From Candidatus Geocrenenecus arthurdayi (GTDB lineage: Archaea; Thermoproteota; Nitrososphaeria_A; Caldarchaeales; Wolframiiraptoraceae), in assembly GCA_023539395.1 (NCBI GenBank), contig JAKCEX010000008.1, positions 1-40,915 on the forward strand: a stretch of 40,915 nt of DNA, written 5' to 3'. Within the stretch, counting starts at the first letter, position 1. Each line of letters opens with the position of its first letter. The notes under the pieces are model-generated. The model saw only the letters and a list, made by a program, of their open reading frames with translations, ran no database searches and had not been told where the DNA came from. The translations under genes were made by a program, and so were the position numbers. This document shows, in pieces, positions 38,587 to 40,915 of this stretch.

Positions 38587-40044
38587 GTGGTTAAGGTTTT
38601 AGAAGATACAGGGTTATCTTTCGATGATGTTCTCCTAATACCCAGAAAATCATCTATAGCTTCTAGAAGGGAGATCGATACAAGGTCTAGGTTTACTCAA
38701 AGAATTATGATAAATATTCCTATTGTATCTGCAGCAATGGATACTGTTACAGAGTCTGCTATGGCTATAACTCTTGCAAGAGAAGGTGGAATAGGAGTTA
38801 TACATCGTTTCATCCCTCCTGAGAGGCAAGCAGAAGAAGTAGCTAAAGTAAAGAGAGCAGATAATGTAATCATTGAGAAGCCTATAACCATAGCCCCAGA
38901 TAGAACAATTGGAGAAGCAAGAGAACTTATGAGAACCCTCGGGATAAGCGGGTTGCTAGTTGTAGATCCTGAAAATAGGCTTCTAGGGATCCTTACAAGA
39001 AGAGATGTATTATTCGAAGCCGACTCTACACCTGTAAGTAGATGTATGACCCCTAGAGAAAGAATGATTGTTGCTGAATCAAACATATCTTTAGAGGAAG
39101 CTAAGAATATCTTCAAACAATATAAAGTTGAGAAGATACCTATAGTTGACCGAGAGAACAGAGTTAGAGGATTAATAACATGCGTCGACCTATTAAAGAG
39201 AGAAGCCTACCCTAATGCTTCCAGGGATTCTAAGGGTAGATTACTTGTCGCAGCCGCAATAGGCGTAAAAGAGAAAGAAATAGACCGTGCAAAGCTTCTG
39301 GTAGAGGCTGGAGCTGATGCAATAGTGATAGATGTTGCACATGGGCATACAAGCATGTGTATTGAGACTATAAAGAAGCTTAGAAGAATCTATGGAGATA
39401 ATGTAGAGATAGTTGCAGGCAATGTTGCTACAGCTGAAGGTGTTGAAGATCTTGCCTCAGCAGGAGCAAACGCTGTAAAAGTAGGCGTAGGACCGGGCTC
39501 CGTATGTACAACGAGGATAGTTGCAGGTGTAGGTGTACCACAATTATCTGCTATTCTTGAATGTGCTAATGCAGCTGAGAAGATGGATGTACCAATTATA
39601 GCTGATGGAGGTATACGTGAAAGCGGAGATATAGTTAAAGCATTAGCTGCAGGAGCTTCCTCCGTCATGATAGGTAGGTTGCTAGCTGGAACAGATGAGA
39701 GCCCTGGAGCAGTAGTAGTTAAGAATGGTAGAAGATACAAAATCTATAGAGGTATGGCTTCAATATATGCTATGCTAGGTAGAGAGGCTAGGTCTAGGGA
39801 AGATCCTACAGAAGCATTGATAGATGCTTCTGAATATTCATACTATGCTGAAGGTGTCGAAGCATACATACCATACACTGGCTCAGCTTCAGAGATGATA
39901 AAGAAGCTAGTTGCAGGATTAAGATCTGGAATGAGCTACCTAGGTGCGAGAACTATACCTGAACTAAAACATAACTCTATATTCATTAGAGTTACACAAG
40001 CAGGAATAAGAGAAAGCATGCCTCATGATGTTGAAGTAATCTAG
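38587..40044 (+). CDS. guaB: Inosine 5'-monophosphate dehydrogenase
   Basis: Oxidises IMP to XMP, the committed step to GMP. 485 residues: catalytic barrel interrupted by two CBS domains (about 98-206) that in many IMPDHs sense purine nucleotides. Active-site loop [15 protein letters not shown] with Cys307, [20 protein letters not shown] for phosphate binding, and the mobile flap after [16 protein letters not shown] start with GAGAGGG five bases upstream. It has its own promoter after the purP pair and ends the nucleotide-synthesis block. Confidence 0.96.
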
Positions 40045-40140
40045 TGTAGCATCTCAGGAGTACCACCCTACTCTATCCTCGGAAACATAAACAAACCATC
40101 CTAAAAATAATGAAGTAAATAAAATAATTTAGGGAGAGTG

Positions 40141-40256
40141 GCTGGCCGATGAGTTATAGTAGTTGCTCGGCTAGCGGGAGATCTAGATTTCACCACTCTC
40201 TGGAGTATTACTTCAAACCCTACTAGCCTCACAACTTTTACTGCTCATCGGCCAGC
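40141..40256 (-). ncRNA. Candidate bridge RNA / seekRNA of the IS110-like element
   Basis: Read on the transposase strand. GCTGGCCGATGAG (40256-40244) pairs perfectly over 13 bp with CTCATCGGCCAGC (40153-40141). Inside, AGU/ACU pairs, then AGUUGU (40236-40231) with GCAACU (40166-40161), tandem G-A/A-G mismatches, GGCUAGU (40228-40222) with GCUAGCC (40175-40169), and GGG (40220-40218) with UCC, leaving a loop of about 38 nt. G-U pairs and sheared G-A mismatches make the minus-strand RNA fold better than the plus strand. Loop bases GAGAGUGG (40200-40193) are complementary to 40141-40134. The stem overlaps the last transposase codons. No expression evidence. Confidence 0.6.
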
Positions 40257-40915
40257 AGGGTCGTTGATTGTCTGGTCGTCTGCTATAAAATATGCTTTCC
40301 TAAACATCTTCAGTATCCTTGACTGTATCTTGTATATTGCTTTCATTTGTGGTAGAGAATAGACGATCCCTCTGAATTCTTCTGGGACCTCCCATTTATC
40401 TCTCCATCGTTTTGCATTAATGTAAATGTTTATAGCTAGCTGAGATAGATGATTGCGGATATGGTAGTTGTATCTTCCATTGTTACGGTTTGGCGTTAAT
40501 CCTACGAACTTCTTAAGAATATTCAATGGTAGATGTAATGGTAGTTTTATCGTTAATATAGCGACTTCAACACTATCATTGAATCCAAGTAGTCTACAAG
40601 CCTCCTTATAAATAGTGTTATCAGAAAGCATCTCAATAATCTTCTCTGCGAGCTTCTTTTTATCCTCCTCCATTAGTCTTATGTCGTCTCTCAGCCAGTC
40701 ATACCCATCATTCCTAACCCACTGCTTCAATGCCTTAATCCTCCTAGATAATAGCTCGTACTCGTTGATCAACGGTTGTACTTTTATCTTCTTTTCTATC
40801 TCTTCGATTGTTAAAGCCCTAAAACATTCTCTAGGAATCTTTGAAAGCATCAATGCATCAACTTCATCAGACTTCCTTACATTATTCTCTCTTCTAAGCT
40901 TCTTCAACATACTTG
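40245..40915 (-). CDS. IS110-family-like transposase (partial, N-terminus beyond window)
   Basis: At least 222 residues. Near the visible start, NNVRKSDEVDALML matches the KTDxxDA end of the RuvC-like DEDD domain of IS110 transposases. A coiled middle region and the Transposase_20 domain follow: LLGFNDSVEVAILTIKLP and FVGLTPNRNNGRYNYHIR. In IS110 enzymes the GLxP motif is followed by a Ser-Gly holding the catalytic serine; here it reads Asn-Gly. The protein ends NDPAGR, with its last codons inside the basal stem of the ncRNA candidate. The reading frame is open to 40915. Confidence 0.75.
   Translation of the reverse strand, partial: SMLKKLRRENNVRKSDEVDALMLSKIPRECFRALTIEEIEKKIKVQPLINEYELLSRRIKALKQWVRNDGYDWLRDDIRLMEEDKKKLAEKIIEMLSDNTIYKEACRLLGFNDSVEVAILTIKLPLHLPLNILKKFVGLTPNRNNGRYNYHIRNHLSQLAINIYINAKRWRDKWEVPEEFRGIVYSLPQMKAIYKIQSRILKMFRKAYFIADDQTINDPAGR

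What the first reader, a model, noticed from the sequence alone, without database searches (positions are those of the whole stretch)
40134..40200. Loop-to-flank complementarity that looks like a guide:donor match
GAGAGTGG in the apical loop (40200-40193, minus strand) is perfectly complementary to CCACTCTC (40141-40134), which lies just beyond the basal stem at the presumed element end and contains a CT dinucleotide like the core of characterised IS110 sites. Either this is the donor guide pairing with the element terminus, or it makes a pseudoknot in the RNA. Both are informative, and it also places the element boundary.
Basis: partly seen in the sequence, partly recalled or inferred. Interest (0 to 1): 0.7.

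Follow-up and report, generated by a model that had tools for sequence, protein, structure and literature searches.

The report
Guide RNA of an archaeal transposon

Summary
The 8-mer pair is real: GAGAGTGG, minus strand 40200-40193, against CCACTCTC, 40141-40134. CCACTCTC is kept in sister copies whose loops cannot pair with it, and loop-to-flank pairing is no better in own than in swapped pairs. GAGAGTGG is largely the loop and 3' arm of a small inner hairpin. The element end is not at 40134: in four congeners guaB runs straight into purA; here inserted DNA starts at the guaB stop, about 40045.

Two strands of an internal loop read the target. The left strand (40216-40207) is complementary to ATTACTTCAA at guaB; the right strand (40186-40181) repeats the abutting CTAGAT. 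Across related copies, own loop-to-flank matches far exceed swapped ones. For one copy the site spelled by the two loops is found uninterrupted in two relatives.

It works like an IS1111/IS110 seekRNA or bridge RNA. The transposase clade is very divergent: it fails curated IS110 cut-offs and lacks the Ser-Gly motif and inverted repeats. Related copies use either guide order, and three abut intron-bearing tRNA genes.

The parts
40245..40913 (-). C-terminal 222 aa of a divergent IS110-like transposase; the 5' part is cut off by the contig end
   Evidence: ORF; full-length relative in own genome L012:4240-5154; weak match to NF033542 IS110 RNA-guided transposase for that relative, E 4.5e-5, below the curated cut-off
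40142..40255 (-). guide hairpin, overlapping the transposase stop codon; long outer stem with an internal loop and a small inner hairpin
   Evidence: fold z -4.68 for the surrounding 181 nt; 32 pairs kept in 9 copies, 6 with changes on both sides
40207..40216 (-). left guide strand TTGAAGTAAT, complementary to the right half of the target
   Evidence: 10-nt match at the guaB end; same strand of the loop enriched for own-flank matches over all copies
40181..40186 (-). right guide strand, CTAGAT, repeating the left half of the target
   Evidence: 6-nt match abutting and overlapping the left-guide match at guaB
   Evidence: MFE structure
40134..40141 (-).
   Evidence: same stretch in L010, L011, L012b and, as CCCCACCCC.., in other copies
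40045..40141 (-). right tail of the inserted DNA, about 97 nt, from the hairpin to the guaB stop
   Evidence: guaB-purA synteny broken here only in this genome among five of the genus
40031..40044 (-). target site CTAGATTACTTCAA (minus strand) at the guaB stop codon
   Evidence: matches to both guide strands; uninterrupted CTATATTACTTCAAC in relative G001

Best explanation
The feature is the guide hairpin of an RNA-guided transposon of the IS110/IS1111 kind, encoded just after the transposase gene on the minus strand. The two strands of one internal loop read the target: the left strand (TTGAAGTAAT) would pair with one DNA strand of the right half-site, the right strand (containing CTAGAT) with the other DNA strand of the left half-site, the two readings overlapping at the junction. 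In this window the target was the guaB stop codon, where guaB normally runs into purA, and the element landed there. Shown from sequence: conserved hairpin, synteny break, loop-flank matches in many copies, and empty sites agreeing with the prediction for copy L086. Inferred: that the hairpin is transcribed, that the transposase binds it, and that it pairs with the DNA.
For: Left strand against right flank: 9 of 33 copies have an exact run of 9 nt or more against 1.39 in flank swaps within base-composition groups, p<5e-5; far flank null. Right strand against left flank p=0.003. Independent set of 25 copies from other families repeats it. L085: 12-nt and 10-nt matches on the two sides. L086: joined guides predict a nadK-nob1 junction that is found uninterrupted in G012 and G014. 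L146: joined flanks form an intact tRNA-Asn by ARAGORN, matched by both guides. Window: 10-nt plus 6-nt matches at the exact synteny break. Hairpin pairing conserved with changes on both sides.
Against: Many copies match nothing, which I put down to decay. Loop limits were set by hand and spans chosen partly after looking. One control orientation (complement of the right strand) reached p=0.02. The window's left junction and purA are missing from the assembly. The right-strand match in the window is only 6 nt and contains a palindrome. A second 8-nt copy of the right half-site lies in the tail at 40112-40119. No expression or activity data.
Confidence: 0.85

Rival explanations
1. One reading: GAGAGTGG in the loop recognises CCACTCTC at the element terminus, as a donor-binding loop would.
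For: Perfect 8-nt complementarity in the window.
Against: L010 and L011 keep CCACTCTC and lack GAGAGTGG; own pairs no better than swapped; element end is about 90 nt further out; in four copies with both ends placed, the only 8-nt complement to an end is the left guide itself at the RE and one AGTAAAAG match at the LE of L085.
Confidence: 0.04
2. The two 8-mers form a pseudoknot in the RNA of this copy.
For: Both lie on the same strand and within one likely transcript.
Against: Not kept in sister copies, and it competes with the inner hairpin predicted by folding.
Confidence: 0.08
3. The hairpin is only a terminator or an inverted-repeat end of the element, and the loop-flank matches are chance.
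For: A T-rich run follows the hairpin in many copies. Loops and spans were chosen by hand.
Against: Own pairs beat swapped pairs in two separate data sets with mostly null controls. The nadK-nob1 junction was looked up after the prediction and agreed. Matches fall at the synteny break in the window and inside a tRNA gene in L146.
Confidence: 0.05

Closest known systems
IS1111 group with seekRNA (Siddiquee et al. 2024, PMC11187229)
   Same: Non-coding RNA downstream of the transposase gene; two short guide segments, the one complementary to the top strand lying 5' of the one complementary to the bottom strand; their matches overlap in the target.
   Different: No inverted repeats of 7 nt or more, beyond one A-rich match, in the outer 70 bp of four copies; transposase far below profile cut-offs and without the Ser-Gly motif; some copies use the other guide order.
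IS110 / IS621 bridge RNA (Durrant et al. 2024, PMC11208160; Hiraizumi et al. 2024, PMC11208158)
   Same: A target loop whose two strands read the two DNA strands and share the core; RuvC-like acidic residues in the transposase.
   Different: Bridge RNA of IS621 has separate target and donor loops and lies upstream; here one loop, downstream, with no donor loop found; S241-type Ser-Gly motif not found.
1,868-bp insertion sequence at Caldiarchaeum tRNA-Thr(GGU) (Sugahara et al. 2012, PMC3293823)
   Same: L132 (G024) has the same anatomy: an 813-bp (270 aa) ORF next to tRNA-Thr(GGU) with an intron near position 24/25; its loops spell the tRNA-Thr exon sequence without that intron.
   Different: That paper proposed a pNOB8-type plasmid origin and its passages read here mention no guide RNA. 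The identity with L132 is inferred from anatomy; the clones were not compared base by base.
TIGR-Tas (PMC12045711)
   Same: Single-unit guide RNA with two spacers reading the two DNA strands, in proteins structurally related to IS110.
   Different: TIGR RNAs come in arrays and direct binding or cleavage; here one hairpin sits in a transposable element.

Membership tests
IS1111 group | Long non-coding region with the RNA downstream of the transposase gene | tested here: met
   Hairpin directly after the transposase gene in the window and related copies
IS1111 group | Guide order: top-strand complement 5' of bottom-strand complement, overlapping in the target | tested here: inconclusive
   Met in the window, L085, L086, L066, L138; opposite order in L139, L146 and others
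IS1111 group | Subterminal inverted repeats of 7-17 bp | tested here: not met
   No repeats of 7 nt or more in L085, L086, L146; one A-rich 7-mer in L138
IS110/IS1111 transposases | Match to DEDD_Tnp_IS110 or NF033542 at the curated cut-off | tested here: not met
   Best E 0.015 (Pfam) and 4.5e-5 (NCBIfam), 22.7 bits against a cut-off of 140
IS110/IS1111 transposases | Acidic catalytic residues of the RuvC-like domain | tested here: inconclusive
   YVDT and KSDxxD conserved in the window's family; the first D of KSDxxD is replaced in most copies of other families
IS110/IS1111 transposases | G--P----SG motif with the nucleophilic serine | tested here: not met
   Motif reads GLTPxKNNGRY; a tyrosine is shared by all aligned proteins except L164 and L165
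IS110 bridge RNA | Separate donor-binding loop | tested here: not met
   One internal loop; no convincing complement to the element ends apart from the guides
IS110/IS1111 | RNA bound by the transposase; circular intermediate | not testable with these tools
   Needs experiment

The most novel reading that the evidence does not exclude
A separate, so far unnamed clade of RNA-guided recombinases in Caldarchaeales, which lost the serine loop of IS110 enzymes (perhaps using the shared tyrosine), uses one roughly symmetric guide loop in either orientation, and carries captured host DNA at its right end. Where the target is a tRNA gene, the right end supplies the tRNA 5' half with an intron, so that insertion restores the tRNA while breaking up the guide's own target. 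That would make these elements a source of tRNA introns.
Probability: 0.3. Interest if true: 0.88.

Novelty: new variant of a known kind. Interest (0 to 1): 0.7.

Why it matters
It extends RNA-guided transposition to an archaeal group with a transposase that current profiles barely see. Targets can be predicted from the RNA and checked against empty sites in relatives. The lack of the IS110 serine motif raises a direct question about the chemistry. The tRNA cases suggest a mechanism for a tRNA disruption reported in 2012, and link guide-directed insertion to tRNA introns.

Tried and rejected
(2) An H/ACA-like topology, both loop strands complementary to the same DNA strand: considered when both strands matched right flanks, dropped because in L085, L086, L066, L138, L139 and L146 one strand is repeated and the other complemented. 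(3) First passes with short flanks and unfixed boundaries gave only weak enrichment; longer tails and stratifying by base composition resolved it. (4) Left half of the window element in contig C77: that contig holds an N-terminal piece at another gene, not at purA. (5) purA in the own genome: not found by DNA or by Pfam profile. (6) Pfam for the upstream small ORFs: nothing. (7) Solved structures: nothing. (9) The first protein scan of genome contigs found nothing; the alignment scan named two hosts. (10) Profile-profile comparison with ordinary archaeal IS110 proteins was weak (E 0.088, thin profiles).

Full report
What was claimed. Both 8-mers are there.

Setting. The window is a whole contig (G000:C30). 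On the minus strand the C-terminal 222 aa of a transposase (40913-40245) run in from the contig end. Its stop codon lies within a long hairpin (40255-40142; the surrounding 181 nt fold with z -4.68). Over nine close copies the hairpin keeps 32 pairs, six of them with changes on both sides, and slid versions lose the pairing, so it is probably kept as RNA structure. Related copies with the same layout occur in the own genome, in the same genus and family and in other families of the order. Two hosts could be named from matching contigs: Candidatus Wolframiiraptor gerlachensis (G016) and Nitrososphaerales archaeon KUA_Bin06 (G001). The order name Caldarchaeales is my inference, from these names and from the Caldiarchaeum paper.

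L010 and L011 have CCACTCTCCCTAAATT after the hairpin, L012b TCACTCTCTCCC, and none of them has GAGAGTGG in the loop. Over 33 hairpins, complementarity between the apical region and the next 25 nt is no greater in own than in swapped pairs (summed p=0.82; >=8 nt p=0.36). In the window GAGAGTGG is the loop end and 3' arm of an inner hairpin, a position filled by other sequences in other copies. The pair is best taken as chance.

What the loop really matches. The region between the outer stem and the inner hairpin has a left and a right strand, and both vary between copies. In L085 (G016) the right strand repeats 12 nt of the left flank (GGGAAATAGGTT) and the left strand is complementary to 10 nt of the right flank (GTTTAAGCCT); the flanks share ATAGGTTT. 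In L086 the two matches are CTTAGCCGAG and GCTTCTTTCT. Joined, they predict a direct nadK-nob1 junction. That junction was then looked up in relatives: G012 has CCTAGCCGAGCTTCTTCCTG and G014 has CTTAGCTGAGCTTCTTTCTAA, in agreement. Over all copies, permuting flanks within base-composition groups, left strand against right flank gives 9 copies with runs of 9 nt or more against 1.39 expected (p below 5e-5). The far flank is null, and so are most control orientations; one, the complement of the right strand, reached p=0.02 on two measures. Right strand against left flank gives p=0.003. An independent set of 25 copies from other families repeats the pattern.

The window's own target. The left strand TTGAAGTAAT (40216-40207) is complementary to ATTACTTCAA at the guaB end, and the right strand holds CTAGAT, which at guaB overlaps that match (minus strand 40044-40039 and 40040-40031). 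In four congeners guaB is followed almost at once by purA, and G001 reads CTATATTACTTCAAC at the same place. Here guaB is intact to its stop and then inserted DNA begins, so the right end of the insertion is at about 40045, some 97 nt beyond the hairpin. The tail contains about 42 nt like the asd gene. The left junction and purA are not in the assembly, so only one side could be checked.

Both guide orders. In several copies the strands are used the other way round: left strand repeated in the left flank, right strand complementary to the right flank. Examples are L139, and L146, where the two halves are tRNA-Asn and the joined flanks are read by ARAGORN as an intact tRNA-Asn. Right strand against right flank is enriched in both data sets (p below 5e-5). 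L135 and L139, in one genome, share their left-end sequence but match by opposite strands. The IS1111 seekRNAs tested in the paper have one order and its IS110-type example the other. Use of both by one scaffold is suggested, not proven.

tRNA cases. L132, L145 and L146 sit next to tRNA genes interrupted in or near the D arm, and their loops spell uninterrupted exon sequence. L132 has the anatomy of the 1,868-bp insertion described at Caldiarchaeum tRNA-Thr(GGU), whose insert included an intron at 24/25 and ended at tRNA position 27 (PMC3293823). That the element's right end brings a tRNA 5' half with an intron is an inference.

Family. It works like an IS1111 seekRNA (PMC11187229) or a bridge-RNA target loop (PMC11208160). 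As a member it fails tested features: curated profile cut-offs, the Ser-Gly motif, which carries the nucleophile S241 in IS621, and inverted repeats. I therefore call it a divergent relative and a new variant, not an IS1111 member. Whether this clade has been described was checked only in the open library.

Limits. Loop limits were set by hand and spans chosen in part after looking. Many copies are decayed and match nothing. A second 8-nt copy of the right half-site lies in the tail (40112-40119) and is unexplained.

Noticed in passing
window 40052-40093 (+): About 42 nt in the element's tail resemble the middle of the asd gene, which is intact elsewhere in the genome (L014). It may be host DNA carried along from an earlier site.
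   Followed up: partly
window 40112-40119 (+): A second copy of TGAAGTAA, 8 nt of the left guide strand, lies inside the tail, about 70 nt from the guaB match. Unexplained.
   Followed up: no
L066 and L070 (G001), right flanks: The tail of L066 holds the 3' end of a gene that reads like prefoldin beta, which L070 has at greater length; the two then diverge. This looks like captured flanking DNA.
   Followed up: partly
L146, L145 (G028) and L132 (G024), right ends: tRNA genes interrupted in or near the D arm stand at the right end of these elements, while the guides match the uninterrupted exon sequence; a tRNA 5' half also stands left of L146.
   Followed up: partly
L168 (G000:C77) 1253-1594; L088 2903-3187; L090 3510-3815: A small ORF of about 94-113 aa precedes the transposase gene in several copies. 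No Pfam match.
   Followed up: partly
alignment A1, residue 231 of L012:4240-5154: A tyrosine is shared by the aligned transposases, except L164 and L165, near where IS110 enzymes have their Ser-Gly motif.
   Followed up: partly
L168 (G000:C77), contig end: The N-terminal end of another copy interrupts a gene that reads like a HEPN-domain protein (named by eye, not by profile search).
   Followed up: no
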